A stretch of DNA of 64,000 nucleotides. Source: Dehalococcoidia bacterium. GTDB taxonomy: Bacteria > Chloroflexota > Dehalococcoidia > CAUJGQ01. The stretch lies in contig DATGEL010000094.1 in assembly GCA_035310145.1 (NCBI GenBank), forward strand, positions 1-64,000, in the 5' to 3' direction. A model generated the notes under the pieces. It was not told where the DNA came from, searched no databases, and was given only the letters and a program-made list of their open reading frames with translations. Numbering within the stretch: the first letter of the stretch is position 1; the number at the start of each line of letters is the position of its first letter. The translations under genes and the position numbers were made by a program. This document shows positions 5,308 to 35,884 of this stretch, in pieces.

Positions 5308-5330
5308 CCCAAGCGAGGCAGGGATAGGCC

Positions 5331-5486: not shown

Positions 5487-5517
5487 CCCGTCTCGCGTTG
5501 AGCGAGGCGGGTTTTTT
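5487..5517 (+). terminator. intrinsic terminator inside the hsp70 leader
   Basis: CCCGTCTCGC (5487-5496), loop GTTGA, GCGAGGCGGG (5502-5511) and six T residues (5512-5517). The stem is 10 bp with one G-T pair. It lies 36 bases in front of ATG 5554 and on the same strand. It is therefore either an attenuator or the end of a short independent RNA. The upstream segment GAGGGGCGGG (about 5463-5472) could pair with the left arm and form an alternative structure. Confidence 0.75.
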
Positions 5518-5553
5518 GTTGCCCGCGACGCGGGCGGGCAGAGAGGGAATGCG

Positions 5554-6915
5554 ATGACGCTCAGCGTCGGCCTCGACTTCGGCACCTCAAACTCCTCCGT
5601 CGCCGTCTACGACGGGCAGCGCGTGACCCTGGCGCCGCTCGACGCCGCCGGACGCGATCCGTCCGTGATGCGCTCGCTGCTCTACCTCACGAAGCAGGGT
5701 GAGCGCTTCGTCGGCCAGGAAGCGTTCGACCGGCACCAGCGCGACAACGTCGGCCGCGCGGTGAAGCTGGAGCGACACTACGTCGGCGATGTGACGATGA
5801 CCTTCTCCGGAGTAGGCACGATTACGATCGAGGCGAACGCGCTGATCGACGTGAACGAGCCGGGGCGCCTCTTCCAGTCGATTAAGTCGCTGCTGCCCGA
5901 CCGCGTCTTCGCCAGGACCTCGGTCTACGGCGTCGATCTCACCGCAGAAGACCTGGTCGTGCTGCTGGCCGGCGAGATCGTGCAGCGGGCCGAGCGCTTC
6001 CTCGGGCGCCCGATCGAGCGGCTGACCGTCGGCCGGCCCGTGCACTTCTCCGCGAAGGCCGCCGACGACGCGCTCGCCCGCGAGCGGCTGCGTGCGGCCG
6101 TGGCGCGGCTCGGCGTACCGCACCTGGATTTCCTGGAAGAGCCGGTCGCCGCCGGCATCGGCTTCGCGCAGCAGGGCGCGGCGCCGGCCGACGGGCGTCC
6201 CTTCCTCGTCTTCGACTTCGGCGGCGGCACGCTGGACGTGACGGTGCTGCGTGGGGCCGGCGAACGGGCGGAGGTGCTGGCCACCGGCGGCACGCCGATC
6301 GGCGGCGATCTGCTGGACCGCCGCATCGTCGAAGCGCGGCTGCTGCGCCAGTTCGGCGAGAGCGCGACATACGGCCCGCGCCGGCTGCCAGTGCCGCGCC
6401 ACATCCTCGCCCGCCTGCTCGACTGGCAGACGCTCTACCTGCTCAACCGCCCCCAGCCGCTGGCGCAGATCGAGGAGATCCAGCGCTCCTCCTCGCAGCC
6501 GCGCGAGCTGGCGAACCTGCATACGCTGGTGACGCGCGGCTACGGCGCGGCGCTCTACCGCGCGGTCGAAGAGGCGAAGCAGCGGCTCTCCGAGGCCGGC
6601 CACGCGCCGATCGCCCTGGAGCGCGAAGGCATCGACGTGCGCGACGTGCTGACGCGCGAGGGGTTCGAAGGCATCATCCGCGCCCAGTACGACGCCGCGC
6701 TGGCGCTGGTCGACGCCGTCGTACGCGAAGCAGGCGTCGCGCCGGAGGCCGTGGGCGCGCTGGTGACGACGGGCGGCTCCTCGCGCATTCCCCTGTTTCA
6801 GCGCGGCCTGCGCGGGCGCTTTCCCAACGCGCGGCTGGCGGAGCAGCACGCCTTCACCAGTGTCGCCGCCGGCCTGGCGATCGCGGGCTGGCAGGGCCGC
6901 CGCGCCGCCGCCTGA
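5554..6915 (+). CDS. short Hsp70-family (YegD-like) ATPase
   Basis: A 453-aa actin-fold ATPase of the Hsp70 superfamily without the substrate-binding domain of DnaK. Phosphate-1 loop GLDFGTSNS is at residues 6-14, phosphate-2 FDFGGGTLDVTVL near 220-232, and the adenosine motif TTGGSSRIP near 405. An insert around residues 285-350 is typical of YegD-like proteins, and total length matches E. coli YegD (about 450 aa). It probably acts in the cytoplasm on an unknown client; no DnaJ or GrpE is adjacent. ATG 5554 with GAGAGGGA upstream is preferred over an in-frame GTG at 5458, which would place the terminator inside the coding region. Confidence 0.85.
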   Translation: MTLSVGLDFGTSNSSVAVYDGQRVTLAPLDAAGRDPSVMRSLLYLTKQGERFVGQEAFDRHQRDNVGRAVKLERHYVGDVTMTFSGVGTITIEANALIDVNEPGRLFQSIKSLLPDRVFARTSVYGVDLTAEDLVVLLAGEIVQRAERFLGRPIERLTVGRPVHFSAKAADDALARERLRAAVARLGVPHLDFLEEPVAAGIGFAQQGAAPADGRPFLVFDFGGGTLDVTVLRGAGERAEVLATGGTPIGGDLLDRRIVEARLLRQFGESATYGPRRLPVPRHILARLLDWQTLYLLNRPQPLAQIEEIQRSSSQPRELANLHTLVTRGYGAALYRAVEEAKQRLSEAGHAPIALEREGIDVRDVLTREGFEGIIRAQYDAALALVDAVVREAGVAPEAVGALVTTGGSSRIPLFQRGLRGRFPNARLAEQHAFTSVAAGLAIAGWQGRRAAA

Positions 6916-6924
6916 TGCGCCGGC

Positions 6925-7977
6925 TCAGCCCGTGTGCGACCAGTCGGCCGCGCTGCCCGCCGCCATCTGCTGGCGGCCGCTGCCGTCGGCCTGCATGCGC
7001 CAGAGCGTGCCGCCGCTGTCGCCCGTGTCGCTGTAGAGCAACTGGGAGCCGTCGGGAGACCACGCTTCCACGACGCCGCTGCCGAGGTCGCTGTCTTTGC
7101 CCGTCGCCGGGTCGTAGACGTGGATCGACCAGCCGTCGCTTCCGCCCACGCGGTAGGCGAGCAGGCCGCCGGCCGACCACAGCGGGTTTTGCCCGTCGGC
7201 GGCGACGAGCTGAGCGGCGCTGCCGTCGGCACCGGCGATGTACAGGACGACGCTGATCGAGCCGCTCTGCAACGCCTGGCTGGAGAAGGCGACGTGCGAG
7301 CCATCGGCGGAGAAGGCAAGCTGCGAGCCGGCCACGAAGGGCTGCGCCGCGCCGCCGCCCGTGGCCGCGGCGTATGTCGCATTGCTCGCCCCCGCGCTGC
7401 CGGCGCAGCGGCTGAACAGCGCCGTGCCCGCCGGCGACCAGCCCTCGTTGAACAGGCAGAGGTTGCCCGCCGAGCCAAGTTGACGCGGCGCGGTGCTGCC
7501 ATCGGCGGCCGCCGCCCAGATCGCGGCGGCGCTGAGGTTCGTGACCAGACGGTAGGAGACCTGGGAGCCGTCCGGCGACCAGCGCGGCGTGTCGGCCACC
7601 ACGCCCGGCGCGGTGCAGCCGTCCTCGCCGCAACCGCTGGGCGCTACGGCCTGTGTCGTGATCGCGTGGGCGTTCGTGCCGTCGGCGTTCATCACCCAGG
7701 CGTTGCCGTCCGGGCCGATGAAGGTGATCTGCTTGCCGTCGGGCGACCAGCGCGGCTCGGCGGCGCTGCGCCCGGCCGGCGCCGTCCAGATGCGGCTCGG
7801 CGTGCCGCCGCCGCCTGGCAGGGTGTAGATGCCGTCGCCGCGGGTGAAGACGATCGTGCCGGCGTTCGTGGCGGCTTGCACGTGGGGCGCCAGGGCGAAG
7901 ACGGCGAGCGCGAGGCAGAGCAGCGCCGCCGGCAGCGCCGGCCGCGTGATTCGCCGTTGTCGCTCGCTGCCCCGCAT
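6925..7977 (-). CDS. secreted TolB-like beta-propeller (PD40 repeats)
   Basis: A 350-aa exported protein. The signal peptide is at residues 1-36 (a basic start, then PAALLCLALAVFALAP, cleavage near VQAAT). The mature chain carries WD40-like PD40 blades: RWSPDGKQITF, RWSPDGSQVSYR, AFSADGSHVAFS and AWSPDGSQLLYS. It most likely folds as one six- or seven-bladed propeller acting as a binding scaffold outside the membrane. ATG 7977 follows GAGGAA. It converges with the hsp70-like gene 9 bp away. No Tol-Pal genes are near, so a true TolB role is not supported. Confidence 0.75.
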   Translation of the reverse strand: MRGSERQRRITRPALPAALLCLALAVFALAPHVQAATNAGTIVFTRGDGIYTLPGGGGTPSRIWTAPAGRSAAEPRWSPDGKQITFIGPDGNAWVMNADGTNAHAITTQAVAPSGCGEDGCTAPGVVADTPRWSPDGSQVSYRLVTNLSAAAIWAAAADGSTAPRQLGSAGNLCLFNEGWSPAGTALFSRCAGSAGASNATYAAATGGGAAQPFVAGSQLAFSADGSHVAFSSQALQSGSISVVLYIAGADGSAAQLVAADGQNPLWSAGGLLAYRVGGSDGWSIHVYDPATGKDSDLGSGVVEAWSPDGSQLLYSDTGDSGGTLWRMQADGSGRQQMAAGSAADWSHTG

Positions 7978-8305
7978 GGTGTTCGCTTCCTCTGCCGCAG
8001 GGGCCGTTGTCTCAGCCCACGACCATAACTCTGATGATAGTAACGAGCCGGCTCCGCATACTGGTCCACACTCTGGTTGTGAGTATGTTGACAGTGGATC
8101 CGTATCGATCGTCACATACGTTCGATGCGCTGCCCCGCTCACCCTCCGTGCGGTCTTGCGGCGCCGAAGGTGGTAGGGTTGCGCCGCGGCGTACTGACCC
8201 GACGGGTTAGTATGAAATACGGGTCAGAACAGCACCCAGCCGATCTACTAGTCGAGCGCGACGCCATATGCTGAAGCCCCGGCGCTGCCGGGCGAAGTGA
8301 GAGCG
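7978..8305. other. 328-bp divergent intergenic region
   Basis: Between the propeller gene (minus) and the DinB-family gene (plus). No gene is seen. It contains an imperfect palindrome CATACT...AGTATG (about 8057-8087), a TTGACA hexamer (8093-8098) without a convincing -10 at normal spacing, and the inverted repeat described at 8194-8227. It is somewhat less GC-rich than its surroundings, as expected of a promoter region. Confidence 0.4.
8194..8227. promoter_or_regulatory. operator-like inverted repeat
   Basis: CTGACCCG (8194-8201) and CGGGTCAG (8220-8227) are perfect inverted arms 18 bases apart, with a smaller ACCCGACGGGT palindrome overlapping the left arm. It lies about 80 bp in front of the DinB-family gene and could be a repressor site or an RNA hairpin. 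No cognate regulator is adjacent. Confidence 0.35.
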
Positions 8306-8827
8306 ATGGACACGATCGAGTTCATCCGCGGCCAGATGCGCGGCCTGCACACGCTGCTCGACCGCGTGACCGAAGACCTGAGCGACGAGCAACTGCACTA
8401 CGTCGCGCGGCCCGGCGTGCAGCCGATCGCCTTCTGTCTCTGGCACTACGTGCGCACGGAAGACAACATCATCCGCTTCGTGATCCAGCACCGCCCAACC
8501 GTGTGGATGGAGAGTGGCTGGGACGTGCGCCTCGGCCTCGACTCGCGGGCGCAGGGCACCGGCATGTCGGACGAGGACGCCTCCGCCTTCCGCCTGCGCT
8601 CGCTGCCCGACTTCCGCGCCTATATGACGCAGGTCTGGGCGGCGACGGATGACTATCTCGCCGGCCTGGACCCGGCCGCGGCCGACCAGCGCGTCACGAT
8701 CAAGCCGGTGGGGGAGATGTCGCTGATGCAGGCGCTCGGCGGTATGTGCCTCACCCACGGCTACCGGCACCTGGGCGAAATAGAGTACGCCCGTGGACTC
8801 GTCGGCCTCAAAGGCGCGACGATCTGA
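8306..8827 (+). CDS. DinB-family four-helix protein
   Basis: A 173-aa protein of the DinB/YfiT-like metalloprotein superfamily (DUF664-like). The start IEFIRGQMRGLHTLLDRVTEDLSDEQL is the typical first helix. Metal-ligand histidines are plausible at FCLWHYVRTEDN and MCLTHGYRHLGEIEY. Members include thiol-dependent transferases and stress proteins; the substrate is unknown here. ATG 8306 is favoured; an in-frame GTG three codons earlier is possible. The following flavin reductase is about 46 bp downstream on the same strand, so the two may be co-expressed. Confidence 0.75.
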   Translation: MDTIEFIRGQMRGLHTLLDRVTEDLSDEQLHYVARPGVQPIAFCLWHYVRTEDNIIRFVIQHRPTVWMESGWDVRLGLDSRAQGTGMSDEDASAFRLRSLPDFRAYMTQVWAATDDYLAGLDPAAADQRVTIKPVGEMSLMQALGGMCLTHGYRHLGEIEYARGLVGLKGATI

Positions 8828-8873
8828 CCGGCGTACAACATCCAATGGGCGGGTATTGCCCACGGAGGCTGGC

Positions 8874-9419
8874 ATGGGACCGCTGCTGGTGATCGCGGGC
8901 AGCATCCGCGTGGAGCGCCGCTCCTTCCAGGTGGCCGAATACGTGCGCGAGCGTCTCGCCGAGATCACCTCCGGCGTCGAGCTGATCGACCCGCGCGACT
9001 ACCTGCTGCCGCCCTATGACGGCGTCACCACGACGGCAGCCTCCGATGAGCTGGCGCAGCGTTGCCTCGATGCAAGCGGCTTCGTCTTCGTCTGCCCGGA
9101 GTGGCACGCCGGCGTGCCGGGCACGCTGAAGAACATGCTCGACTACCTGGGCGCGGCGCAGTTCAGCGGCAAGCCGGTGGGGCTTGTCTCCGTTTCGTCG
9201 GCGCTGGGCGGGTCGATCGTGCTCAGCCATTTGCGCGACATCCTCGGCGTGCTCGGCGCGGCGCTGGTCGGCCCCTTCGTGCCGGTGCGCAACGTGAAGA
9301 CGGCCTTCGACGACGCCACCGGCCGCCTGGCCGACGAGAAGTTCGAGGCCTACCTGGTCGGTGCCCTGCGCCGCGTGGCCGGCCTGCGCGAGGCGCTGAC
9401 GCTGGCGCCGCAGCGGTAG
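8874..9419 (+). CDS. NADPH-dependent FMN reductase-family flavoprotein
   Basis: A 181-aa flavodoxin-fold reductase. The FMN phosphate loop is AGSIRVERRSFQVAEYV at residues 8-24, and CPEWHAGVPGTLKNMLDYL (near 75-93) is the family hallmark binding the isoalloxazine ring. GKPVGLVSVSSALGGS follows as expected. It would reduce FMN or a quinone/azo-type substrate with NAD(P)H in the cytoplasm. ATG 8874 follows GGAGG; the 27 in-frame codons upstream overlap the previous gene and do not fit. Normal family length. Confidence 0.85.
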   Translation: MGPLLVIAGSIRVERRSFQVAEYVRERLAEITSGVELIDPRDYLLPPYDGVTTTAASDELAQRCLDASGFVFVCPEWHAGVPGTLKNMLDYLGAAQFSGKPVGLVSVSSALGGSIVLSHLRDILGVLGAALVGPFVPVRNVKTAFDDATGRLADEKFEAYLVGALRRVAGLREALTLAPQR

Positions 9420-9434
9420 AGCGGGCGGCGGGTT

Positions 9435-9684
9435 GGCCCTCTCCCTCACCCCCTACCCACTCTCCCTCTCCCAATGCTGGAGAGAGGGAGAGGGGCGATC
9501 CTGGGGAGGAAGTTTCAGCGTGGGGTCGGGTTAGCCGGTTGCTGGGGGCGCACGGCGTGCGCTGTTCGCGCCGGCGGACGCGACACGCGGCGCGGCGGGT
9601 AACCCGACGCCCGTCTGGATCGCTCTACACCGGATCGCCCCTTTCCCCCAATCCTGGGGGAAAGGGGACGGGGGATAGAGGGCC
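9435..9684. mobile_element. MITE-like inverted-repeat element, copy A
   Basis: About 250 bp bounded by GGCCCTCT...(left) and ...AGAGGGCC (right). Each end has a hairpin around AAT(G/C)CT, at about 9460-9492 and 9638-9667. Between them lie short palindromes, including a GGGGCGCACGGCGTGCGC core. It fills the gap between two convergent genes and covers the last codons and stop of the helicase gene. It is non-coding itself. Confidence 0.65.
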
Positions 9685-12006
9685 GAGCGCCGTCAGCAGG
9701 GCCAGCGCCGCCGCCTTCTCCGGCGGGTCGGCGGGGCGCCAGCAGGCGGCCGAGAGCACGCAGGCCGGGCAGCCCTCGCGGCAGCGGCAGCCCGCGACGA
9801 TCTCGCGGCAAAGCGCGAGCAGAGCGCCCGGATCGGCGGACAGGCGCTCGGCGATCCCGCAGCCGCCGGCGATCGCGTCGTAGAGGAAGAGCGCCGCGCC
9901 GCCCAGCAGCTCGTGCCGCTCCTCGTAACTCGCCACCACGTCGCGCGGGTCGCAGAGCACGCGCAGCGCCGCCGCCGCCGGCAGGAGATGTTCCAGCGCG
10001 TGCAAGGCGGGCGCGAACCGCCGCCGGCCGCCTTCGTCGAGCCGGCGCCGCAGCTCGTCGGGAAACACGAACCAGAGGCCGGCCGTCTCCATCTCGCGGC
10101 GCTCCGGCGGGTCGAGCGTCACCGTACGCCGCACACGCGCCAGGCGCTTGCCCTCGCGGTAGCCGATCGTCGTCCACGTCACCAGCAGGCGGCCCGCGTC
10201 AGAGCTGAACCGGGCGGCTGTGGCGACGCCGGCCACCGCCTCGCTCGGGCGATCTCCGGCAGGCACGCCATTGCCTGAACGCCGGGCCCCAGACCGCGCG
10301 AGCGGCGCCGCCACCGTGACGACCAGCGGCTCGCTGACGGCATCCTCGGGCTCGGCGGCGACGCTGATCCGGTGCGAGACGTGATCGACGGCTTGAACCC
10401 GGTAGGGGCGCCCGCCGTGCAGGTAGACGGCGCCCAGGTGCGCCTCGAGCGTGCGCTGGCTGTCGTCCAGCGTGCCGATCTCGCCCTCCGGCGCCTGCAC
10501 CGTCCAGGTCTCGGCGCCGGAGCCGCGCAGGCTGACCGCGGCGTGCGAGGCACCGGGTCCGGCCCGCCACTGCCCGCCGTCGCGCGTGAGCAGGCCGCTG
10601 GCCGCCGCCGCACGCGGTACGGCGTCGCCGGCCGGCGCCAGAGCGGACAACGTCTCGGGATCCAGCGGCGCTTCCGCGGCGGCACAGCCGAGGTGCTGCG
10701 CGATGATCGCCTCGTTCTCCCGGTCGACGGCCACGTCTTCCAGCACGGATGAAAGCAGCGCCCGATCGTGCGCCGCGTAGTAGGCATCGAGGGCGCGCGG
10801 AAACGGCACGAAGACGACAAGCGACGGCCGCCGCCCGCGCCCGGCACGGCCGGCCTGCTGCCAGAACGAGGCGCGCGATCCGGGAAAGCCCGCGATCACT
10901 GCCGCGTCCAGCCCGCCGATGTCGATGCCCAGTTCGAGCGCGTTGGTGGCGATCACGCCGCGCAGCCTTCCCTGCTTCAAGTCCCGCTCGATCCGTTCCC
11001 GCTCGCGCGGCGCCAGGCCGCCGCGGTACGGCGCCACGCGCCCACCAAGCTCCGCACCCAGCCGTTCCCGCGCCTGCAGCCACATCGTCTCCACGCCGCG
11101 CCGCGTCTGCGCGAACAGGATCGTGCCGATCTCACGCTCGATCAGGCCGCAGAACAGCTCGACCGCCGTCGCCTGGCCACGATCGCCGGTGACAGCCAGC
11201 GACGGCTGCAGCGCCAGCAGCGTGCGCGGCCCGCGCCCGGCGCCGTCCGCACGAATCACCGGCAAGCGGCGGCCCGTCAGCCGTTCGCCGAGCTGCTCCG
11301 GGTTACCGACCGTGGCGGAGCAACCGGCGATCTGCGGCCGCGCGCCGTGCAGCGCCGCGACACGCAGCACCCGCCGCATCAGCATCGCCAGGTGCGCGCC
11401 GAAGACGCCGCGATACAGGTGCATCTCGTCCAGCACGACGAACTGCACGCCCGGCCAGAAGCGCCGCCAGAGCACGTGCTGCCCGCAGAGGCTCAGGTGC
11501 AGCATCTCGGGATTGGTGATCAGCAGCCGCGGCGGATCGGCGCGCAGGGCGCGGCGCGCCTCTTCCGATGTGGCGCCGGTGAGCACCGCAACCGCCGGCG
11601 CCCGCGGCAACGCCCGCGCCCAGGCCGTGAGCGTACGCGCCTGGTCGTTGACGAGCGCATTGGTGGGCGCAATCAGCAGCGCTCTGGCCCGCGGCTCGGC
11701 CAGCAGGCGGGCGAAGATCGGCAGGGCGAAGGCGAGCGTCTTGCCACTGGCGGTCGGCGTGGCGATGGCGACGTCGCCGCCGGCGTGCAGCGCATCGAAG
11801 GCCTGCGCCTGCTGCGGGTAGAGGCCGCGGATACCGCATTCGCGCAGCAGCTCCTGCAGCGCCGGCGGCAGCGGCTGTGCCGGCTCAGCGAAGGTGGGTG
11901 GCGTCTCGGGCAGACTGGCAGTCCAGGCGATGCGATCGGCAAAAGCGCGGCGCAGATCCTTGAAGACTGCATCCACGGGGTCGGCACGGCGCCGGCGCAG
12001 GAACAC
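9625..12006 (-). CDS. MrfA/YprA-like DEAD-box helicase with DUF1998
   Basis: A 793-aa superfamily 2 helicase with a C-terminal DUF1998 zinc-binding domain, the layout of Bacillus MrfA (YprA), a mitomycin C DNA-repair helicase, and of yeast Hrq1. Motif I TPTASGKT is near residue 82, motif II LDEMH near 195, motif III SAT in GCSATVG, and motif VI QQAGRAGRGRRPS near 390. The C-terminal cysteines lie in CRCREGCPACVL. GTG 12006 follows GGAGGAG. The last 20 or so residues (from GPLSPVPF onward) are read from a dispersed repeat. It is probably in an operon with the membrane protein 41 bp upstream. Confidence 0.85.
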   Translation of the reverse strand: MFLRRRRADPVDAVFKDLRRAFADRIAWTASLPETPPTFAEPAQPLPPALQELLRECGIRGLYPQQAQAFDALHAGGDVAIATPTASGKTLAFALPIFARLLAEPRARALLIAPTNALVNDQARTLTAWARALPRAPAVAVLTGATSEEARRALRADPPRLLITNPEMLHLSLCGQHVLWRRFWPGVQFVVLDEMHLYRGVFGAHLAMLMRRVLRVAALHGARPQIAGCSATVGNPEQLGERLTGRRLPVIRADGAGRGPRTLLALQPSLAVTGDRGQATAVELFCGLIEREIGTILFAQTRRGVETMWLQARERLGAELGGRVAPYRGGLAPRERERIERDLKQGRLRGVIATNALELGIDIGGLDAAVIAGFPGSRASFWQQAGRAGRGRRPSLVVFVPFPRALDAYYAAHDRALLSSVLEDVAVDRENEAIIAQHLGCAAAEAPLDPETLSALAPAGDAVPRAAAASGLLTRDGGQWRAGPGASHAAVSLRGSGAETWTVQAPEGEIGTLDDSQRTLEAHLGAVYLHGGRPYRVQAVDHVSHRISVAAEPEDAVSEPLVVTVAAPLARSGARRSGNGVPAGDRPSEAVAGVATAARFSSDAGRLLVTWTTIGYREGKRLARVRRTVTLDPPERREMETAGLWFVFPDELRRRLDEGGRRRFAPALHALEHLLPAAAALRVLCDPRDVVASYEERHELLGGAALFLYDAIAGGCGIAERLSADPGALLALCREIVAGCRCREGCPACVLSAACWRPADPPEKAAALALLTALGPLSPVPFPPGLGERGDPV

Positions 12007-12047
12007 GGCTCCTCCGGACCGCGGCGGATGGGCATGGCTGCGCCGGC

Positions 12048-12665
12048 TCAGCCGGCGGCGTGGCCGGCCTGGCCGGCGTGCTGGTGGTGCGCGGCCAGCA
12101 GGTAAATACGCTCCCCGCAGTATGTGCCGAGCGCCAGCAAGGCGGCGGCGCCCAGCGCGACGCAGAGAAACACGCCGCCGACCGCCACGCCGAAAGCGGC
12201 GCGGTCCGGTGTGGCGGTGATCAGTCCGGCGGCGTCGCCGAGGCCCAGCGCCGAGATCAGCGCGAGGAAGACCATCAGCCCGCCCATACCCAGTGCGAAC
12301 CCGGCCAGCGCCAGACCCCAGTGCCGCGCCAGCGGCGAACAGAGGCCGCAGACCAGCACCGCGACCGTAAAGGACAGATTGGCGATCCAGAGCAGCAGGT
12401 CGAGCCCGCGGCCCGTCTCCGCGCTGCCGGAGCTGATCGCGCCCAGCAGACCGCCCGCAAAGACGAGCAGCAGCGCCGCCGGCAGCCCCACCCAGACGAA
12501 GGCGGCCATGCGCGGCCGCACGAGTGTGAACGGCGCCAGCGCGCGGCTGGTGCCGCCGAGATAGTCGAGCACGGCGGCGGTGCAGGCGAGCAGCAGCACG
12601 CCGACGACCGAGAGCACGAGGATGGCCGAGGCCTGGTTGCCGAGAATGACGTTAAGCGGCGTCAC
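12048..12665 (-). CDS. multi-pass membrane protein of unknown function
   Basis: A 205-aa hydrophobic protein with about five membrane helices (ASAILVLSVVGVLLLACTAAV, FVWVGLPAALLLVFAGGLL, LLWIANLSFTVAVLVCGL, LALAGFALGMGGLMVFLALI, and VGGVFLCVALGAAALLAL). The C-terminus ends with a His/Gln-rich tail (AAHHQHAGQAGHAAG). No family was recognised. GTG 12665 lies about 10 bases past an extended -10 box, so the mRNA may be almost leaderless. It is followed on the same strand by the MrfA-like helicase. Confidence 0.6.
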   Translation of the reverse strand: MTPLNVILGNQASAILVLSVVGVLLLACTAAVLDYLGGTSRALAPFTLVRPRMAAFVWVGLPAALLLVFAGGLLGAISSGSAETGRGLDLLLWIANLSFTVAVLVCGLCSPLARHWGLALAGFALGMGGLMVFLALISALGLGDAAGLITATPDRAAFGVAVGGVFLCVALGAAALLALGTYCGERIYLLAAHHQHAGQAGHAAG

Positions 12666-12674
12666 AGCAGCCGC

Positions 12675-12683
12675 AGTATAACA
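12675..12683 (-). promoter_or_regulatory. extended -10 box directly before a GTG start
   Basis: On the minus strand the sequence reads TGTTATACT (TGn plus TATACT). The 3' end of the hexamer is 12675 and the GTG start begins at 12665. A start site about 7 bases downstream would leave a leader of 0-3 nt. No -35 match is seen, which is usual for extended -10 promoters. Confidence 0.4.
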
Positions 12684-12706
12684 GGGGCAGCGGGCGGGCC
12701 GGCAGT

Positions 12707-12735
12707 TTGACCGTGCCCAGCCAACACGCTAAGCT
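12707..12735 (+). promoter_or_regulatory. candidate promoter of the nfu-like gene
   Basis: TTGACC (12707-12712), 17 bases, then TAAGCT (12730-12735) in front of ATG 12781. The -35 is good and the -10 weak. Confidence 0.35.
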
Positions 12736-12780
12736 ATGTAAGCAATTGTTTGGCCGCACGGCGGCCGAGGGCCGGCCCCG

Positions 12781-13056
12781 ATGATCCTGAATCCGCTGCT
12801 CGTCGACCGGGTCGAAGCCGCGCTCGACGTGATCCGCCCCGCCCTCGAGATGGACGGCGGCACGGTCGAGCTGATCGAAATCACCGCGGACATGACCGTG
12901 CGGCTCAACTTCGTCGGCTCCTGCGGCGGTTGCCCGCTCAGCGCCCTCACGCTCAAGCTGGGAATCGAGCGCACGCTGCGCGAACATGTGCCCGAGATCG
13001 CCGGCGTGGAAGCCGAAGGAATGGGCGAGCCGATCTGGGAGCGGGCGCTGCCGTAG
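12781..13056 (+). CDS. NifU C-terminal-domain (Nfu) iron-sulfur carrier
   Basis: A 91-aa stand-alone Nfu domain that carries and donates a [4Fe-4S] cluster to target proteins in the cytoplasm. The invariant CxxC is in FVGSCGGCPLSALTLKLGIE near residues 44-60, preceded by RPALEMDGGTVELIEI, the canonical family start. Length is normal for single-domain Nfu. ATG 12781 is the only reasonable start. Fe-S clients within the window include IspG. It ends 6 bp from the convergent DehI-like gene. Confidence 0.9.
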   Translation: MILNPLLVDRVEAALDVIRPALEMDGGTVELIEITADMTVRLNFVGSCGGCPLSALTLKLGIERTLREHVPEIAGVEAEGMGEPIWERALP

Positions 13057-13062
13057 CACGCC

Positions 13063-13938
13063 TCAGCCCATGTTGCCGCCCGTCCAGCCCAGGCGCAGCG
13101 CGGCCGTCTGCAACGCCAGCTCGCACAGCCGTTTCTGCGCCTCGGTCACGCCCGCCAGCAGGTCGTTCACGTCCGCGGCCGCGTAGCCCAGGCTGCGGGC
13201 CAGCTCGCCGCTGGCGCGGAAGGGATACGGCAGCGCCCGCACCGCAGCCGTCGCGTACACGTCGAGCTGCGCCGCGGCCTGGGCGTAGGCCTGGGCGCGC
13301 AGCAGCGGCCGCAACTCGCGTCGCACCGTCTCGAAGTAGTCTCCCCAGGCGGCCAGCAGCAGGTACTCGCGGCTGGCGAAGCCGCCGTCGGGCGGGCCGG
13401 AGACGTCGGCCGCCAGCCCTTCCGCCCAGCGCAGCCGCACGCTGATCGGCGCCGGCTCCGGCCGCAGCGCCGCATCCGGTCCCGTGCGCGGCGGTGAGGC
13501 GCCCACCTCGCGGCCCAACAGCGCATCGCGCGCCGCGGTCGCGATCAGCAGCGAGACGGCGTTGATCCGTTCCAGCAGATCCAGCGTTGTGGCCAGCGCC
13601 AGCTTCTCGCCGCCGGCCAGCGGACGGCTGCCGCTTTCGCTTTCGACGCCGCCGACCAGCCGTCGGTGGTCGGAGAAGGGGAAGCCCGCCTCGTACACGG
13701 CGCGCCCGGCGCGGCTCTGCAGCTCGTGCGCCGTGCGTTCGAAGTAGGCCGAGGCGACCGACGGCTTGAGCTGCAGCCAGGCTGCCTGCAGGTAAAGATC
13801 GTAGACCGCGAGCAGCTCAAACAGCTCGCCCACCCAGCAGACGCCCAGCGTGCGGCGCACGTCTTTAAAGACACGCTTGATGCGGTCCAGCCGGTCCTCG
13901 GAGAGGCCGGCGGGCATGCCCGAATGGCGCTGCGTCAC
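13063..13938 (-). CDS. DehI-like (haloacid dehalogenase group I-type) helical protein
   Basis: A protein of about 291 aa with two related halves, the layout of group I 2-haloacid dehalogenase DehI and its many uncharacterised relatives. The first half contains IKRVFKDVRRTLGVCWVGEL, YLQAAWLQLKPSVASAYFER and LQSRAGRAVYEA; the second has WGDYFETVRRELRPLLR and ALPYPFRASGELARSLG. Helical and without a signal peptide. The start is uncertain: GTG 13938 gives a family-like length and ATG 13917 is the alternative. Whether it removes halogen or has another role cannot be told, because active-site residues are not conserved in an obvious short motif. Confidence 0.6.
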   Translation of the reverse strand: MTQRHSGMPAGLSEDRLDRIKRVFKDVRRTLGVCWVGELFELLAVYDLYLQAAWLQLKPSVASAYFERTAHELQSRAGRAVYEAGFPFSDHRRLVGGVESESGSRPLAGGEKLALATTLDLLERINAVSLLIATAARDALLGREVGASPPRTGPDAALRPEPAPISVRLRWAEGLAADVSGPPDGGFASREYLLLAAWGDYFETVRRELRPLLRAQAYAQAAAQLDVYATAAVRALPYPFRASGELARSLGYAAADVNDLLAGVTEAQKRLCELALQTAALRLGWTGGNMG

Positions 13939-27966: not shown

Positions 27967-27998
27967 ACTGTCACCTGTAACCCGTCACCTGTTCCCTA
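27967..27998. repeat. TGTCACC/TGTAACC-type repeat, copy 3
   Basis: CTGTCACCTGTAACCCGTCACCTG and a CTGTTCCC variant abut the 3' end of the thiolase gene (stop at 27996). Only one orientation is present. Confidence 0.5.
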
Positions 27999-29210
27999 CG
28001 CGACGCGCTCGATGACGGCGGCGATCCCCTGGCCGCCGCCGATGCACATCGTCTCCAGCGCGAACTGCGCGTTGCGCCGCTCCATCTCGTTCAGCAGCGT
28101 CGCCATGACGCGCACGCCGGTGCAGCCCACGGGATGGCCGATCGAGATGCCGGAGCCGTTGACGTTGGTGCGGTCGAAGTCACGCTCGCCGAAGTTCCAT
28201 TCGCGCGTGACCGCGAGTACCTGCGCGGCGAACGCCTCGTTCAGCTCGATCAGCTCCATATCGGCCAGCGAGAGGCCGGCCCGTTCCAGCGCCTTCTTCG
28301 TCGCCGGCACGGGGCCGATGCCCATGTAGGCCGGATGCACGCCGGCCACGCCCCAGGAGCGCAGCTTGCCCAGCGGCTGGAGGCCCAGCTCGGCGGCCTT
28401 CTCAGGCGAGGTGACGATGCAGCAGGCCGCGGCGTCGTTCTCGCCGCTGGCGTTGCCGGCGGTCACGGTCGCGTCGGGATCCTGGCGCAGCCGCACGGGG
28501 CGCAGCGCGGCGAGCTTCTCCAGCGTGGTGTCGGCGCGGGGATGCTCGTCGCGGCCGAAGAGCGTGCCCTCGCCCTTCTTCGCCGGCACCGGCACGGCCA
28601 CGATCTCGTTGTCGAACTTGCCGTTCTCGATCGCGGCGACGGCGCGCTGGTGGCTGCGCAGCGCGTACTCGTCCTGTTCCTGCCGCGGGATGTTGTACTG
28701 CTTGCGCAGGTTCTCGGCCGTCTCCAGCATGCCGCCATCCACCGGATAGCGGTAGGTGCCGGCGGTGACGCGGCCACGGTCGAGCCGGTCCATCAGCTTG
28801 ATCTCACCGCGGTTCGGCCCCCAGCGCGTCTGCGTGCTGTAGAACTCGGCGTTGCTCATGCTCTCCACACCGCCGGCCAGCACCACGTCGGCCACGCCGG
28901 TCTGCACCTCCATCGCCGCGAGGCAGATCGCCTGCAGGCCGGAGCCGCAGCGGCGGTCGAGCTGGAATCCGGGGACTTCGACCGGCAGGCCGGCGTGCAG
29001 CGGCGCCAGGCGGCCCATCGCCGGCGTCTCGCCGTTGGGGTAGCAGTGGCCGAAGATCACGTCGTCCACCTGCTCGCCCTTGAGGCCGGAGCGCTCCAGC
29101 ACCTTCTCGACCACCAGCGCCGCCAGGTCCTCTGCTTGCACGTCGCGCAGGGCGCCGCCGAAGCGGCCTACCGGAGTTCGCAGCGGGGTGCAGATCACGG
29201 CCTCACGCAT
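27996..29210 (-). CDS. acetyl-CoA acetyltransferase / 3-ketoacyl-CoA thiolase
   Basis: A 404-aa thiolase catalysing condensation of two acetyl-CoA, or thiolytic cleavage of 3-ketoacyl-CoA. The nucleophile Cys is in QLDRRCGSGLQAI near residue 88, NEAFAAQV near 315, GHPVGCTGVR with the catalytic His near 350, and the second Cys in METMCIGGGQG near 385. All four thiolase motifs are intact. ATG 29210 follows GGAGAG. As an acetoacetyl-CoA former it could feed the ethylmalonyl-CoA route encoded 2 kb away, but a beta-oxidation role is equally possible. Confidence 0.92.
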   Translation of the reverse strand: MREAVICTPLRTPVGRFGGALRDVQAEDLAALVVEKVLERSGLKGEQVDDVIFGHCYPNGETPAMGRLAPLHAGLPVEVPGFQLDRRCGSGLQAICLAAMEVQTGVADVVLAGGVESMSNAEFYSTQTRWGPNRGEIKLMDRLDRGRVTAGTYRYPVDGGMLETAENLRKQYNIPRQEQDEYALRSHQRAVAAIENGKFDNEIVAVPVPAKKGEGTLFGRDEHPRADTTLEKLAALRPVRLRQDPDATVTAGNASGENDAAACCIVTSPEKAAELGLQPLGKLRSWGVAGVHPAYMGIGPVPATKKALERAGLSLADMELIELNEAFAAQVLAVTREWNFGERDFDRTNVNGSGISIGHPVGCTGVRVMATLLNEMERRNAQFALETMCIGGGQGIAAVIERVA

Positions 29211-31564: not shown

Positions 31565-32671
31565 ATGGCAAGCCAGACGGCTCGTTCCAGCAAGACCAAC
31601 GTCGGCCGCTTCTTCGAGGATTTTGCGCAGGGCGAGTCGCTGCGCCACGCCGCGCCGCGCACGCTGCGCGAGGGTGACGCCGCGCTGTACATCGCCCTCT
31701 TCGGCGACCGCTGCCCGCTCTACTGCGACGCCGAGTTCGCCCGCGCCCTCGGCTTCCGTCGCGAGCCGATCAACGACCTGCTCGTCTTTCACACCGTCTT
31801 CGGCAAGTCCGTGCCGGACGTCTCGCTCAATGCCGTCGCCAACCTGGGCTACGCCGACGTGCGCTTCCTGCTGCCGGTCTACGCCGGCGACACGCTGCGT
31901 GCCGAGTCGACCGTGCTCGGCCTCAAAGAAACGTCGAGCGGCGCGACGGGCATCGTCTACGTGCAGACGCGCGGCTTCAATCAGAAGCAGCAGAAGGTTA
32001 TCGAGTTCTACCGCTGGGTGATGGTCAATAAGCGCGACCCGAAGACACCGACCGGCGCCGACTCCGTGCCCGAGCTGCCGGCCAGCGTGCCCGCCGCCTC
32101 GCTGCGCGCGATGCCGGCGCTGCGGGCGCAGGGCTTCGACGCCGGCGCCACGGGCGGCCGCTTCTTCTTCGAGGACTACCAGGCCGGCGAGCGCATTCAC
32201 CACAACGACGGCATGACGATCGAAGAGGCCGAGGCGCAGCTCGCCACGCGGCTCTACCAGAACACGGCGCGCATCCACTTCGACGCGCATTTGACCAAAG
32301 ATACGCGCTTCGGCCGGCGGCTGATCTACGGCGGGCACATCATCTCGATCGCCCGCTCGCTCTCCTTCAATGGGCTGGAGAACGCGCTGGGCATGCTCGC
32401 CTGGAACGGCGGCACGCACGCCAATCCGAGCTTCGCCGGCGACACGATCTACGCCTGGTCGGACGTGCTGGAGAAGGCCGATCTGCCCGGCGCCGCCCAC
32501 GCCGGCGCCCTGCGGCTGCGCCTCGTCGCCGTGAAGAACGCCAACCCGGCGCACGAGGACGTGCCGCTGCGCCTCAGCGACGAGAAAACGGGCCGCGAGA
32601 CCTACAACCCGGCCGTCGTGCTCGACCTCGACTACTGGCTGACGATGCCGCGCCGCACGCCGGTGTCCTGA
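31565..32671 (+). CDS. mesaconyl-CoA (2-methylfumaryl-CoA) hydratase, MaoC-type
   Basis: A 368-aa double-hotdog hydratase of the MaoC family, matching mesaconyl-CoA hydratase, which converts mesaconyl-CoA to beta-methylmalyl-CoA. Half 1 has GRFFEDFAQGESLRHAA and FHTVFGKSVPDVS; half 2 has GRFFFEDYQAGERIHHNDG, NTARIHFDAH and YGGHIISIARSLSF. Length agrees with the known enzymes (about 340-370 aa). The identity is strengthened by the next two genes, which encode the preceding and following enzymes of the same pathway. ATG 31565 is chosen; the upstream in-frame region lacks coding character. Confidence 0.8.
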   Translation: MASQTARSSKTNVGRFFEDFAQGESLRHAAPRTLREGDAALYIALFGDRCPLYCDAEFARALGFRREPINDLLVFHTVFGKSVPDVSLNAVANLGYADVRFLLPVYAGDTLRAESTVLGLKETSSGATGIVYVQTRGFNQKQQKVIEFYRWVMVNKRDPKTPTGADSVPELPASVPAASLRAMPALRAQGFDAGATGGRFFFEDYQAGERIHHNDGMTIEEAEAQLATRLYQNTARIHFDAHLTKDTRFGRRLIYGGHIISIARSLSFNGLENALGMLAWNGGTHANPSFAGDTIYAWSDVLEKADLPGAAHAGALRLRLVAVKNANPAHEDVPLRLSDEKTGRETYNPAVVLDLDYWLTMPRRTPVS

Positions 32672-32698
32672 TCCCGCCTCATACTGGAGCGCAAACCG

Positions 32699-34369
32699 AT
32701 GAGCACGAATACGACAGTGCAGCAGGGGATCTCGCTCGGCGGCGCGCGGCGCCTCACGGCCGCGGCGCAGGGTGTGCTGGACCGCGCCCTGGCGCACGCC
32801 AGAGCCGTGACCAACGCGGGCAAGGCGATCGACGAGCACCAGGTGCAGGCCGAGCGCATCGCCTACGCCGCCACCGAGCTGCGCGCCGCAAGCGAGCTGC
32901 TGCGCTACGCCGAGGCCGCGGCGGCCGCGGGCGAAGCCGGCCCCGAGCTGGAGTCGATGGCGATCGCCTTCGCCGCGGAGACGGCGCAGCGGCTGCGCAC
33001 GCAGATCGAGACCGCGCCCGACGACTTCGGCGTGGACGACGCGACGCTGCGCGCGGAGCTTGGCACGCCGGAGCTGCTGGCGATCATTCGTGCCGGCATG
33101 GCTGAAGCGCGGCACCGCGCCATCGGCCGGCAGGTGCTGGCGACGCGCGGCGGCAACCGCATCTGGCTGGACGACGAGACGGCCGAGATGACGCGCGATC
33201 ACGTGCGCGCCTTCGCCAAAAGCGAGGTCGCGCCGCTGGCCGAGCAGATCCACCGTGAAGACCTGCTCGTGCCGGAAGACCTGATCAAGAAGATCGCGGA
33301 GATGGGCCTCTTCGCCGCCTCGATTCCCGAGCAGTACGGCGGCACCGAGATGGGCTACCCGGTGATGGTGATCACCACCGAGGAGCTGTCGGCTGCCTCG
33401 CTGGGCGCCGCGGGCAGCCTCAACACGCGCCCGGAGATCCTGATCAAGGCGCTGCTCGCCGGCGGCACGGAGGAGCAGCGGCAGACCTGGCTGCCGCGGA
33501 TCGCCTGCGGCGAGAAGCTCGTCGCCATCGCCGTCACCGAGCCGGACATCGGCTCCGACGTGGCCGGCGTCGCATGCAAAGCCGAGCGGGCGACGCTGGA
33601 CGGCAAGGCCGGCTGGCTGATCAACGGCAACAAGGCCTGGAGCACCTTTTCCGGCCGCGCCGACGTGCTGGCGCTGCTGGCGCGCACGAACCCCGACCCG
33701 GCCTCCGGCGCCCGCGGCCTCTCGCTGTTCATCGTCGAGAAGCAGCCCGAGTCCGGTCACGCCTTCGAGCAGCGCCAGCCCGGAGGAGGCGCCATCTCCG
33801 GCAAGGCGATCGCCACACCGGGCTACCGCGGCATGCACTCGTTCATGCTCAACTTCGACGGCTACTTCGTGCCGGCAGAAAACCTCGTGGGCATGGATGC
33901 CGGGCTGAACCGCGGCTTCTATTTGCAGATGGCCGGCTTCGAGATGGGCCGCCTGCAGACCGGCGGCCGCGCCTGCGGTGTCGCCCAGGCGGCGCTGGAG
34001 CAGACCGCGACCTACTGCAGCGACCGCAGGCAGTTCGGCAAGCCGATCGGCGAGTACCAGCTCACCCAGTACAAGCTCGGCCGCATGGCCACGCAGCTCG
34101 CGGCCGCCCGGCAACTGACCTACGCCGCCGCGCGGGCGATGCAGGGGAACGAACGCGGCGCCCTCGACGCGGCGATGGCCAAGCTTTTCGCCTGCGACGT
34201 GGCCGTGTGGCTCACGCAGGAAGGGCAGCTGCTGCACGGCGGCTGGGGCTACGCCGAGGAGACGCCGATCTCGCGCTACGTGGCCGACGCGCAGGTGCTG
34301 CCGATCTTCGAAGGCGCGAAGCCGATTTTGGAGCTGAAGGTGATCGCGCGGAACCTGCTGGCTGGATAA
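32699..34369 (+). CDS. mcd: (2S)-methylsuccinyl-CoA dehydrogenase
   Basis: A 556-aa acyl-CoA dehydrogenase with a helical N-terminal extension of about 155 residues, the length and layout that separate methylsuccinyl-CoA dehydrogenase (about 550 aa) from ordinary members (about 380 aa). FAD/substrate signatures are AVTEPDIGSDVAGV near residue 280, YCSDRRQFGKPIGEYQL near 440, and HGGWGYAEETPISRYVADAQ with IFEGAKPI near the end. It oxidises methylsuccinyl-CoA to mesaconyl-CoA, handing electrons to ETF (not in the window). ATG 32699 follows TGGAGCG, 27 bp after the hydratase gene. Confidence 0.85.
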   Translation: MSTNTTVQQGISLGGARRLTAAAQGVLDRALAHARAVTNAGKAIDEHQVQAERIAYAATELRAASELLRYAEAAAAAGEAGPELESMAIAFAAETAQRLRTQIETAPDDFGVDDATLRAELGTPELLAIIRAGMAEARHRAIGRQVLATRGGNRIWLDDETAEMTRDHVRAFAKSEVAPLAEQIHREDLLVPEDLIKKIAEMGLFAASIPEQYGGTEMGYPVMVITTEELSAASLGAAGSLNTRPEILIKALLAGGTEEQRQTWLPRIACGEKLVAIAVTEPDIGSDVAGVACKAERATLDGKAGWLINGNKAWSTFSGRADVLALLARTNPDPASGARGLSLFIVEKQPESGHAFEQRQPGGGAISGKAIATPGYRGMHSFMLNFDGYFVPAENLVGMDAGLNRGFYLQMAGFEMGRLQTGGRACGVAQAALEQTATYCSDRRQFGKPIGEYQLTQYKLGRMATQLAAARQLTYAAARAMQGNERGALDAAMAKLFACDVAVWLTQEGQLLHGGWGYAEETPISRYVADAQVLPIFEGAKPILELKVIARNLLAG

Positions 34370-34403
34370 GCTCCAGGCGCACGGGACGTTTTTGCCCACC
34401 GAT

Positions 34404-34432
34404 CACCTGTCACCAGTACGCTGAAACCTGCG
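34404..34432. repeat. TGTCACC/TGTAACC-type repeat, copy 4 (short)
   Basis: ATCACCTGTCACCAGTACGC and a degenerate GAAACCTG lie between mcd and the lyase gene. It is the weakest copy of the family. Confidence 0.4.
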
Positions 34433-34442
34433 GAGGCGAACC

Positions 34443-35432
34443 ATGGCTGGCGGAGTCACCATCCGGCGCTCAGAGCTGACGTTACCCGGCCACCAGAGGC
34501 GCATGCTGGAGAAGGCCGCCGCGTCCGACGCCGACGAGATCATGGCGGACTGCGAGGACGCCTGCCCGCTCTCGGCGAAGGGCGAGGAGGTGCGGCGCGT
34601 CATCTCCGAGGCGTTCAACACGCTCGACTGGGGCACGAAGTTCGTCACCTTCCGCCCCAACAACACGCAGTCGCCCTTCTTCGAGGGCGATATCGAATAC
34701 GTCGTGACGCACGCGGTGGACAAGTTCCACGGCGTGATCATCCCCAAGAGCTTCGAGCCCTCGCAGATCGAGCGCGTGGACGAGCTGCTGACGAAGTACG
34801 AGCAGCAGGCCGGCTGGACGCGCACGATCCAGATCGAGGCGCTGATCGAGACGGCGATGGGCGTGGAGAACGCGTATCGCATCGCCACGGCCTCGCCGCG
34901 CATGGCCGGCATCATCTTCGGCATCGCCGACTACGCCGCCGAGATGGGCATCGCCGACGCCTACGAGAACCAGAACATCCGCTTCTTGTACGCCAAGCAG
35001 CGCGTCGTCAACGCCGCCCGCGCCGCCGGCATCGACGCGATCGACAACGTGCATCTCAAGGTGCGCGAGCTGGACGCGCTGCGCGAGATGTCGATCGAGT
35101 CCGCCGGCTACGGTTTCGACGGCCGCTGGGCGATCCACCCCTCGCACATCCCGATCATCAACGAGGTCTACACGCCCAGCGACGCGCAGATCGAACACGC
35201 GCAGAAGGTCGTCGTGCTCTACGAGGAGGCCGACGCGAAGGGGCTTGGCGCGATCGCCGACCCGGACAACGGCGAGATGATCGACGAGGCCACGATCAAG
35301 ATGGCGTTCAAGCAACTGCTGCGCGGCTACAAGGCGGGCAAGGTCGAAGAGGCGTTCATGCAGAAGGCGGCGCGCAGCTCGGCGCACACCGGCTATAACT
35401 TCCTCGGGACGCTGCAGCTCGCCACGGCGTAA
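34443..35432 (+). CDS. HpcH/HpaI-family malyl-CoA / beta-methylmalyl-CoA lyase
   Basis: A 329-aa CitE-like lyase. RRSELTLPGHQRRMLEKAAA is the classical start of malyl-CoA lyases, ADEIMADCEDACPLSAK gives the Asp/Glu ligands, TIQIEALIETAMGVENAYRIA carries the Mg-binding Glu, and GIADYAAEMG the Asp. The expected reaction is cleavage of beta-methylmalyl-CoA to glyoxylate and propionyl-CoA and/or malyl-CoA to glyoxylate and acetyl-CoA. It is third in the hydratase-dehydrogenase-lyase cluster. It could instead act as a citramalyl-CoA lyase; the context makes the pathway role the best reading. Confidence 0.8.
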   Translation: MAGGVTIRRSELTLPGHQRRMLEKAAASDADEIMADCEDACPLSAKGEEVRRVISEAFNTLDWGTKFVTFRPNNTQSPFFEGDIEYVVTHAVDKFHGVIIPKSFEPSQIERVDELLTKYEQQAGWTRTIQIEALIETAMGVENAYRIATASPRMAGIIFGIADYAAEMGIADAYENQNIRFLYAKQRVVNAARAAGIDAIDNVHLKVRELDALREMSIESAGYGFDGRWAIHPSHIPIINEVYTPSDAQIEHAQKVVVLYEEADAKGLGAIADPDNGEMIDEATIKMAFKQLLRGYKAGKVEEAFMQKAARSSAHTGYNFLGTLQLATA

Positions 35433-35484
35433 CCCACAGTCGGGCAGGACAGTCGGTGTCAGGTCCGGATCGGGTGATGACGCC

Positions 35485-35516
35485 CCTGTCACCTGTCACC
35501 AGTAACCTGTCACCTT
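35485..35516. repeat. TGTCACC/TGTAACC-type repeat, copy 5
   Basis: CCTGTCACCTGTCACCAGTA and ACCTGTCACC follow one another in tandem; a degenerate inverted arm (GTGTCAGGTCCGGATCGGGT) lies just upstream at about 35456. The copy ends 5 bp before the AGGAGG site of the VOC gene. Confidence 0.55.
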
Positions 35517-35530
35517 CCAGGAGGCGTACG

Positions 35531-35884
35531 ATGGCGGACGATTGGGCACGGCCCGTTGTCCACTGGGAGATCCAGGCGCGCGACGCGGAGAAACAGCGCG
35601 CCTTCTACAGCCGGCTCTTCAACTGGGAGATCGGCGAGGGGCCGGTGATGCGCATCCCGGCTGGCGTCGGCGGGCCGGAGCCGGGGCCGGCCGGCCACAT
35701 CCGCCAGGGCGACCACCCCGGCGTCTCGCTCTACGTCCAGGTGCGCGACCTGCGCGGGTCCTTGAAGAAGGCGGAGGAGCTGGGCGGCTCGGTGCTTTCG
35801 CAACCCTTCGACCTGCCGCAGGGGCCGACGATCGCCGGCATCGCCGACCCGGAGGGCAATCGCCTGACGCTGGTGCAGCAGTAG
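35531..35884 (+). CDS. VOC-family (glyoxalase/bleomycin-resistance fold) protein
   Basis: A 117-aa single VOC module. It starts PVVHWEIQARDAEKQRAFYSRLFNWEI, the usual first beta-alpha-beta unit, and ends TIAGIADPEGNRLTLVQQ, the typical C-terminal metal-ligand strand. In this subgroup (small proteins with a D-P-E-G-N end) the ligand and reaction are unknown. ATG 35531 follows AGGAGG. It lies about 100 bp after the lyase gene and could be read from the same promoter, but a repeat separates them. No epimerase signature that would make it an ethylmalonyl/methylmalonyl-CoA epimerase was identified. Confidence 0.75.
   Translation: MADDWARPVVHWEIQARDAEKQRAFYSRLFNWEIGEGPVMRIPAGVGGPEPGPAGHIRQGDHPGVSLYVQVRDLRGSLKKAEELGGSVLSQPFDLPQGPTIAGIADPEGNRLTLVQQ

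What the first reader, a model, noticed from the sequence alone, without database searches (positions are those of the whole stretch)
31565..35432. Lower ethylmalonyl-CoA pathway cluster: hydratase, methylsuccinyl-CoA dehydrogenase, lyase
Three consecutive genes match the enzymes that take methylsuccinyl-CoA to mesaconyl-CoA, beta-methylmalyl-CoA and then glyoxylate plus propionyl-CoA. The middle gene has the long N-terminal extension specific to methylsuccinyl-CoA dehydrogenase. Chloroflexus uses the hydratase and lyase in the 3-hydroxypropionate bicycle but is not known to need Mcd, so finding all three together in a putative Chloroflexota member suggests the ethylmalonyl-CoA route, or a hybrid, for acetyl-CoA assimilation.
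Basis: partly seen in the sequence, partly recalled or inferred. Interest (0 to 1): 0.6.

Follow-up and report, generated by a model that had tools for sequence, protein, structure and literature searches.

The report
Dehalococcoidia ethylmalonyl-CoA pathway lower-arm operon
Three neighbouring genes make the last steps of the ethylmalonyl-CoA pathway, a known way for bacteria to grow on acetate-like carbon, here in an uncultured relative of Dehalococcoides where the pathway appears undescribed and where one earlier step seems to be done by a different kind of B12 enzyme than in the textbook version.

Summary
In detail: mch (31565-32671), mcd (32699-34369) and an mcl-like lyase (34443-35432) lie in tandem on the + strand. 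The genome is a 5.3-Mb MAG of class Dehalococcoidia (Chloroflexota). The EMC reading is supported. The genome has Ccr, three B12 mutases, a two-domain epimerase, a B12 subunit, MeaB and malate synthase, and no isocitrate lyase. Among 60 sampled class genomes, all 6 with a window-type (clade 2) Mcd have Ccr, against 5 of 54 without (p = 9e-6). The window Mcd is not in the Paracoccus clade. It belongs to a second Mcd clade with PDB 8ciw (solved with (2S)-methylsuccinyl-CoA bound) and with Mcds from ccr-ecm operons of Accumulibacter and Planctomycetota. That clade keeps the three substrate arginines but changes the C2-methyl pocket (Ala285 to Ile/Val). The main new point lies outside the window. 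The canonical MeaA-type Ecm is absent. Its place next to Ccr is taken by a mutase of a separate, Ccr-associated clade, which in one relative sits in a cluster encoding nearly all the pathway's steps. Activity is inferred, not shown. Verdict: a new variant of a known pathway, in a lineage for which I found no earlier report.

The parts
31565..32671 (+). mch: mesaconyl-CoA (2-methylfumaryl-CoA) hydratase, double hot-dog type
   Evidence: Pfam MC_hydratase over cut-off; PDB 4e3e 421 bits, 8hgn beta-methylmalyl-CoA dehydratase 401 bits; directly upstream of mcd in ten other Chloroflexota loci. A GTG start at 31460 is possible but homology begins at about residue 43 of that frame.
32699..34369 (+). 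mcd: (2S)-methylsuccinyl-CoA dehydrogenase, clade 2, with the ~155-residue N-terminal extension
   Evidence: 8ciw 439 bits, 6es9 294 bits; fold TM 0.90/0.85 over full length; R244, R377, R424, S240, T421 and catalytic E538 conserved, I277/V279/S381 changed relative to PdMCD A285/F287/E380; tree.
34443..35432 (+). mcl-like: beta-methylmalyl-CoA / malyl-CoA lyase of the CitE-like HpcH/HpaI family
   Evidence: Best PDB hits are Mcl 5ugr 167 and 4l9y 145 bits, over the CLYBL-type lyase 5vxc 104.5; orthologues at 45-76% in the same position in G001, G017, G051 and in the EMC-like clusters of G034 and G007. The substrate is inferred from context.
27996..29210 (-). acetyl-CoA C-acetyltransferase; could supply acetoacetyl-CoA to the upper arm (inferred; divergent, not in the operon)
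   Evidence: PRK06205 686 bits over cut-off 551; not conserved next to mch-mcd in relatives.

Best explanation
The three genes are the lower arm of an ethylmalonyl-CoA pathway that replaces the glyoxylate shunt in this Dehalococcoidia bacterium. Acetyl-CoA units are condensed and reduced to crotonyl-CoA. Ccr (contig C84) reductively carboxylates this to ethylmalonyl-CoA. An epimerase (C103) and a B12 mutase (most likely the C84 catalytic subunit, sharing the only B12 subunit found, on C103) give (2S)-methylsuccinyl-CoA. The window's Mcd oxidises this to mesaconyl-C1-CoA, Mch hydrates it to beta-methylmalyl-CoA, and the Mcl-like lyase splits it into glyoxylate and propionyl-CoA. Malate synthase (C104) joins glyoxylate to another acetyl-CoA. 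Shown: presence, order and homology of the genes, conserved active-site residues of Mcd, co-occurrence with Ccr, absence of isocitrate lyase. Inferred: all catalytic activities, the assignment of the C84 mutase as Ecm, and flux direction.
For: Gene identities. Mcd fold and residues; 8ciw of the same clade was solved with (2S)-methylsuccinyl-CoA bound. Ccr over cut-off, adjacent to a mutase. Epimerase, B12 subunit, MeaB. Malate synthase. No isocitrate lyase: only a 307-aa PrpB/PEP-mutase-family protein. Clade-2 Mcd and Ccr co-occur 6/6 against 5/54 in class genomes, p = 9e-6. Clade-2 Mcds sit in mcd-mch-ecm-ccr clusters in Accumulibacter and a Planctomycetota MAG (there with a distant Ccr homologue), and in mcd-mch-ecm in a Pseudomonadales MAG. 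The C84-like mutase is Ccr-associated, 9/11 against 4/49, p = 2e-6, and lies in a thiolase-crotonase-ccr-mcl-ACAD-MaoC-mutase-SDR cluster in relative G034. Composition agrees with all contigs being of one genome (tetranucleotide r 0.988-0.994).
Against: The canonical MeaA-type Ecm is missing. C84-like mutases also occur in about four Ccr-negative genomes. The Mcd has Ile where PdMCD has Ala285; in R. sphaeroides Mcd the Ala-to-Ile change was inactive (PMC5798300). Lower arm, Ccr-mutase and epimerase-B12 genes lie on different contigs. Malonyl-CoA reductase, PhaB/PhaJ and propionyl-CoA carboxylase were not searched for. Fisher values treat related genomes as independent. No expression or activity data exist.
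Confidence: 0.82

Rival explanations
1. The trio degrades C5 dicarboxylates taken up from outside (methylsuccinate, mesaconate or itaconate type), activated by a CoA transferase, and is not the end of an EMC pathway.
For: Catabolic (RS)-methylsuccinyl-C4-CoA dehydrogenases exist in itaconate clusters (PMC12290011). Some clade-2 relatives on plasmids sit beside CoA-transferase genes (Variovorax L048, pAKD34 L050).
Against: No CoA-transferase gene was recognised among the neighbouring genes examined. Clade-2 Mcd co-occurs with Ccr in 6/6 class genomes. 8ciw of this clade was solved with (2S)-methylsuccinyl-CoA. The genome has no isocitrate lyase, so another anaplerotic entry for acetyl-CoA is expected.
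Confidence: 0.1
2. The genes take part in a 3-hydroxypropionate bicycle or a hybrid of it.
For: Mch is closest to the double hot-dog type whose solved structures include 4e3e and 8hgn (that 4e3e is from Chloroflexus is from memory). The phylum contains bicycle users.
Against: The bicycle needs no Mcd. No propionyl-CoA-synthase-like long frame among Ccr-model hits (longest open frame 700 aa). Ccr and the EMC partners are present.
Confidence: 0.04
3. Ccr and the C84 mutase make substituted malonyl- or succinyl-CoA extender units or a storage precursor, and the window trio serves a separate minor route.
For: Ccr scores close to AntE (549 bits), which from memory belongs to a secondary-metabolite (antimycin) pathway. 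A paper on alkylsuccinyl warheads of secondary metabolites names ethylmalonyl-CoA mutase (PMC5719088, abstract and search result only).
Against: Ccr and clade-2 Mcd co-occur across several families of the class. G034 has Ccr, C84-like mutase, ACAD, hydratase and Mcl in one cluster with thiolase, crotonase and SDR, which looks like primary metabolism.
Confidence: 0.04

Closest known systems
Ethylmalonyl-CoA pathway of Rhodobacter / Methylorubrum / Paracoccus
   Same: Ccr, epimerase, B12 mutase, Mcd, Mch, Mcl, malate synthase; no isocitrate lyase in the genome.
   Different: Mcd from a second clade (36.5% identity to PdMCD, altered methyl pocket); no MeaA-type Ecm, with a non-MeaA mutase beside Ccr; host in Dehalococcoidia.
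Mcd of Pseudomonas migulae (PDB 8ciw)
   Same: Same Mcd clade, full-length fold with extension (TM 0.90), same Ile / hydrophobic / Ser pattern at PdMCD 285/287/380.
   Different: 45% identity; genomic context of the Pseudomonas gene not seen here.
EMC operon of Candidatus Accumulibacter / Competibacteraceae (Ca. Contendobacter EMC: PMC8956781)
   Same: Clade-2 Mcd with a Mch homologue; the Accumulibacter locus also has Ecm and Ccr (Ccr 66% to own).
   Different: Uses MeaA-type Ecm with fused B12 domain and a distant Mch (34%).
3-hydroxypropionate bicycle of Chloroflexus
   Same: Mch and a lyase for beta-methylmalyl-CoA.
   Different: No Mcd or Ccr needed there; the lyase here is closer to the Mcls 5ugr and 4l9y than to 4l7z/6kin (that the latter are Chloroflexus-type lyases is from memory).

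Membership tests
(2S)-methylsuccinyl-CoA dehydrogenase (Mcd) | ~155-170-residue N-terminal extension on an acyl-CoA dehydrogenase core | tested here: met
   Core begins about residue 158-160; full-length Foldseek match to 8ciw and 6es9
(2S)-methylsuccinyl-CoA dehydrogenase (Mcd) | Three arginines for the substrate carboxylate (PdMCD R252, R376, R421) and catalytic Glu535 | tested here: met
   R244, R377, R424, E538; kept in all 90 clade-2 members
(2S)-methylsuccinyl-CoA dehydrogenase (Mcd) | C2-methyl pocket Ala285/Phe287 as in PdMCD | tested here: not met
   Ile277/Val279; 8ciw, solved with the substrate, has the same kind of replacement (Ile/Ile), so the feature marks one Mcd clade and not all Mcds
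(2S)-methylsuccinyl-CoA dehydrogenase (Mcd) | Activity on (2S)-methylsuccinyl-CoA | not testable with these tools
   Needs an enzyme assay
Ethylmalonyl-CoA pathway | Crotonyl-CoA carboxylase/reductase | tested here: met
   579 bits, cut-off 378.55, C84
Ethylmalonyl-CoA pathway | Ethylmalonyl-CoA mutase of the MeaA/Ecm subclade | tested here: not met
   Only three mutases in the genome, none in the MeaA clade; a Ccr-adjacent non-MeaA mutase is the candidate
Ethylmalonyl-CoA pathway | Ethylmalonyl-/methylmalonyl-CoA epimerase | tested here: met
   C103 two-domain protein, 202 bits over cut-off 114.95
Ethylmalonyl-CoA pathway | Mch, Mcl and malate synthase | tested here: met
   Window genes and C104; malate synthase is below the TIGR01344 equivalog cut-off
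Glyoxylate shunt | Isocitrate lyase | tested here: not met
   No hit to TIGR01346 at 1e-30; sole PF00463 hit is a 307-aa PrpB/PEP-mutase-type protein
3-hydroxypropionate bicycle | Propionyl-CoA synthase and malonyl-CoA reductase | tested here: inconclusive
   No propionyl-CoA-synthase-sized frame hit by the Ccr model; malonyl-CoA reductase not searched

The most novel reading that the evidence does not exclude
Dehalococcoidia run an ethylmalonyl-CoA pathway in which the ethylmalonyl-CoA mutase arose separately from MeaA/Ecm, from the methylmalonyl-CoA-mutase side of the family, and in which the dehydrogenase and hydratase steps exist in two exchangeable forms: long Mcd with double hot-dog Mch (window), or a short FadE3-like ACAD with a single-domain MaoC (G034, G007).
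Probability: 0.5. Interest if true: 0.62.

Novelty: new variant of a known kind. Interest (0 to 1): 0.48.

Why it matters
It extends the EMC route of acetyl-CoA assimilation to Dehalococcoidia, a class known from its organohalide-respiring members; I found no report of this in the papers searched. It gives testable candidates for a second origin of ethylmalonyl-CoA mutase, and means that looking only for the MeaA-type Ecm would miss the pathway in these organisms. The clade-2 Mcds offer natural variants of the methyl pocket, a site that has been engineered in the Rhodobacter enzyme (PMC5798300).

Tried and rejected
NCBIfam equivalogs do not name any of the three window proteins. The VOC protein just downstream (35456-35884) was considered as the epimerase and rejected: Pfam gives generic Glyoxalase and contig C94 is not among the TIGR03081 hits. 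The PF00463 hit on C84 was considered as isocitrate lyase and rejected (307 aa, PrpB/PEP-mutase type). The short ACADs beside Ccr in G033, G034 and G059 were tested for the Mcd arginine triad and lack Arg252, so I do not call them Mcd by sequence. A sharper test of Ccr by its CO2-pocket residues was not completed: the alignments show the conserved His of QGSHFAN, but I had no verified numbering. Nucleotide comparison of class relatives with named contigs gave no species-level match, so the class was fixed through two class members of 1.4-1.5 Mb with 26-27 reductive dehalogenase matches.
Full report
What is there. Three + strand genes follow each other with gaps of 27 and 73 bases: mch 31565-32671, mcd 32699-34369, mcl-like 34443-35432. 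Mch reaches the Pfam cut-off for mesaconyl-CoA hydratase and scores 421/401 bits against the solved proteins 4e3e and 8hgn. The dehydrogenase's best solved relatives are the two known methylsuccinyl-CoA dehydrogenases. The lyase is of the HpcH/HpaI-CitE family, with malyl-CoA/beta-methylmalyl-CoA lyases as its best solved relatives.

Host. The window is contig C94 of a 5.3-Mb assembly, 99.8% complete. Two genomes of the same class are single 1.4-1.5 Mb contigs with 26-27 reductive dehalogenase matches, which identifies the class as Dehalococcoidia (that this profile means Dehalococcoides is established knowledge). Named Chloroflexi and Dehalococcoidia MAGs carry the same mch-mcd pair.

The dehydrogenase. 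An AlphaFold model (mean pLDDT 89) matches 8ciw over the whole length at TM 0.90 and 6es9 at 0.85; other acyl-CoA dehydrogenases match at about 0.6 by query length. 8ciw is described as Mcd of Pseudomonas migulae with bound FAD and (2S)-methylsuccinyl-CoA. Against the residues described for the Paracoccus enzyme (PMC5798300), the window protein keeps all three substrate arginines, Ser248, Thr418 and the catalytic Glu, but has Ile for Ala285, Val for Phe287 and Ser for Glu380. A tree of 97 rows separates two Mcd clades: one of three rows with PdMCD, Azospirillum and G004, and one of 90 with the window protein, 8ciw, Accumulibacter, Competibacteraceae, Actinomycetota and Myxococcota. All 90 keep the arginines and the Glu; positions 285/287/380 are Ile or Val, nearly always Val or Ile, and Ser. 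Within the second clade, Accumulibacter (L072) has mcd-mch-mutase-B12-ccr together, a Planctomycetota MAG (L082) the same order with a distant Ccr homologue (35%), and a Pseudomonadales MAG (L085) mcd-mch-mutase-B12. Transcription of EMC genes, mcd included, has been reported in Ca. Contendobacter (PMC8956781).

The rest of the pathway. Ccr is on C84 at 579 bits against a 378.55 cut-off, followed on the same strand, 34 bases on, by a 605-residue mutase catalytic subunit without a B12 domain. C103 carries a protein with two epimerase domains, the genome's only B12 small subunit over cut-off, and MeaB, in a row. Malate synthase is on C104. Isocitrate lyase is absent. Tetranucleotide composition agrees with these contigs belonging with the window (r 0.988-0.994). 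In 60 genomes of the class, all six with a window-type (clade 2) long Mcd (including the window's own) have Ccr, and 5 of the other 54 do (p = 9e-6). The genomes are related, so this is not a strict probability. None of the six has isocitrate lyase; the three genomes that have it lack Ccr.

The mutase. The MeaA/Ecm clade, identified through Paracoccus, Methylobacterium and Ruegeria genes, of which the Ruegeria and one Paracoccus gene are annotated as meaA, has NVCSYHLQEAG, VQVNSLGLTEAQPENN and QLPAWNEA; none of the window genome's three mutases has these. In a 33-row tree, C84 falls in a separate clade (ultrafast bootstrap 99, SH-aLRT 98) with one member each from nine of the eleven Ccr-bearing genomes, marked by ALSC where the other mutases of the class mostly have HTNS. 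It keeps the Tyr and Arg that bind the carboxylate in methylmalonyl-CoA mutase (residue roles from memory). About four Ccr-negative genomes also have it (three by motif, G027 by identity only), giving p = 2e-6 for association with Ccr; in one of these, G023, a distant Ccr-family gene lies directly beside it. In G034 it lies in a cluster of thiolase, crotonase, ccr, mcl, short ACAD, single-domain MaoC, mutase and SDR, whose Mcl is 65% identical to the Mcls that follow mch-mcd in G017 and G051. This makes the C84-like clade the best candidate for Ecm here. It also suggests that the short ACAD and MaoC can stand in for Mcd and Mch; orthologues of that pair (63% ACAD, 63% MaoC) are on C103 of the window's own genome.

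Mechanism and confidence. The most likely role is acetyl-CoA assimilation through the EMC pathway (0.82). Shown are the genes, their order, the residues and the co-occurrence. Inferred are the activities, the Ecm assignment and the physiological direction. Catabolism of external C5 dicarboxylates (0.1), a bicycle hybrid (0.04) and extender-unit or storage supply (0.04) are less likely.

Novelty. The pathway is known and the window genes are members of known enzyme families, the Mcd from its less studied clade. Searches of the held papers found none whose title or abstract links the EMC pathway to Chloroflexota or Dehalococcoidia, and none at all that names both SAR202 and crotonyl-CoA carboxylase; subscription literature is not covered. 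The new elements are the host class and the non-MeaA mutase.

Noticed in passing
L014 (G000:C84) 806-2623, with L011/L172: Ccr-adjacent mutase of a non-MeaA clade with the ALSC motif, lacking a B12 domain; three mutase catalytic subunits in this genome appear to share one B12 subunit.
   Followed up: yes
L046 (G000:C103) 8285-9178: A 297-residue protein with two methylmalonyl-CoA-epimerase domains in tandem, directly before the B12 subunit and MeaB; the two domains might serve methylmalonyl- and ethylmalonyl-CoA.
   Followed up: partly
L210 (G034:C8:66000-84000) 5053-13900: Near-complete EMC-like cluster (thiolase, crotonase, ccr, mcl, short ACAD, single-domain MaoC, C84-like mutase, SDR) without a long Mcd.
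   Followed up: partly
L211 (G007:C33) 5626-10037: mcl, short ACAD, MaoC and C84-like mutase in a row, with no Ccr found in this genome.
   Followed up: partly
L024 / L045 (G004:C2) and L025 (G044): Paracoccus-type Mcd (Ala/Phe/Glu pocket kept) in two class members in which no Ccr was found.
   Followed up: no
L141 (G001:C128): The Ccr of the nearest relative is only 49% identical to the window genome's Ccr and has an in-frame TAG; decay, misassembly or another role.
   Followed up: no
L051 (Sphingobium plasmid AP027342): A clade-2 Mcd relative near a gene annotated mch and a citE-like lyase in a gene cluster with racemase, amidohydrolase and esterase, perhaps a catabolic use of the same steps.
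   Followed up: no
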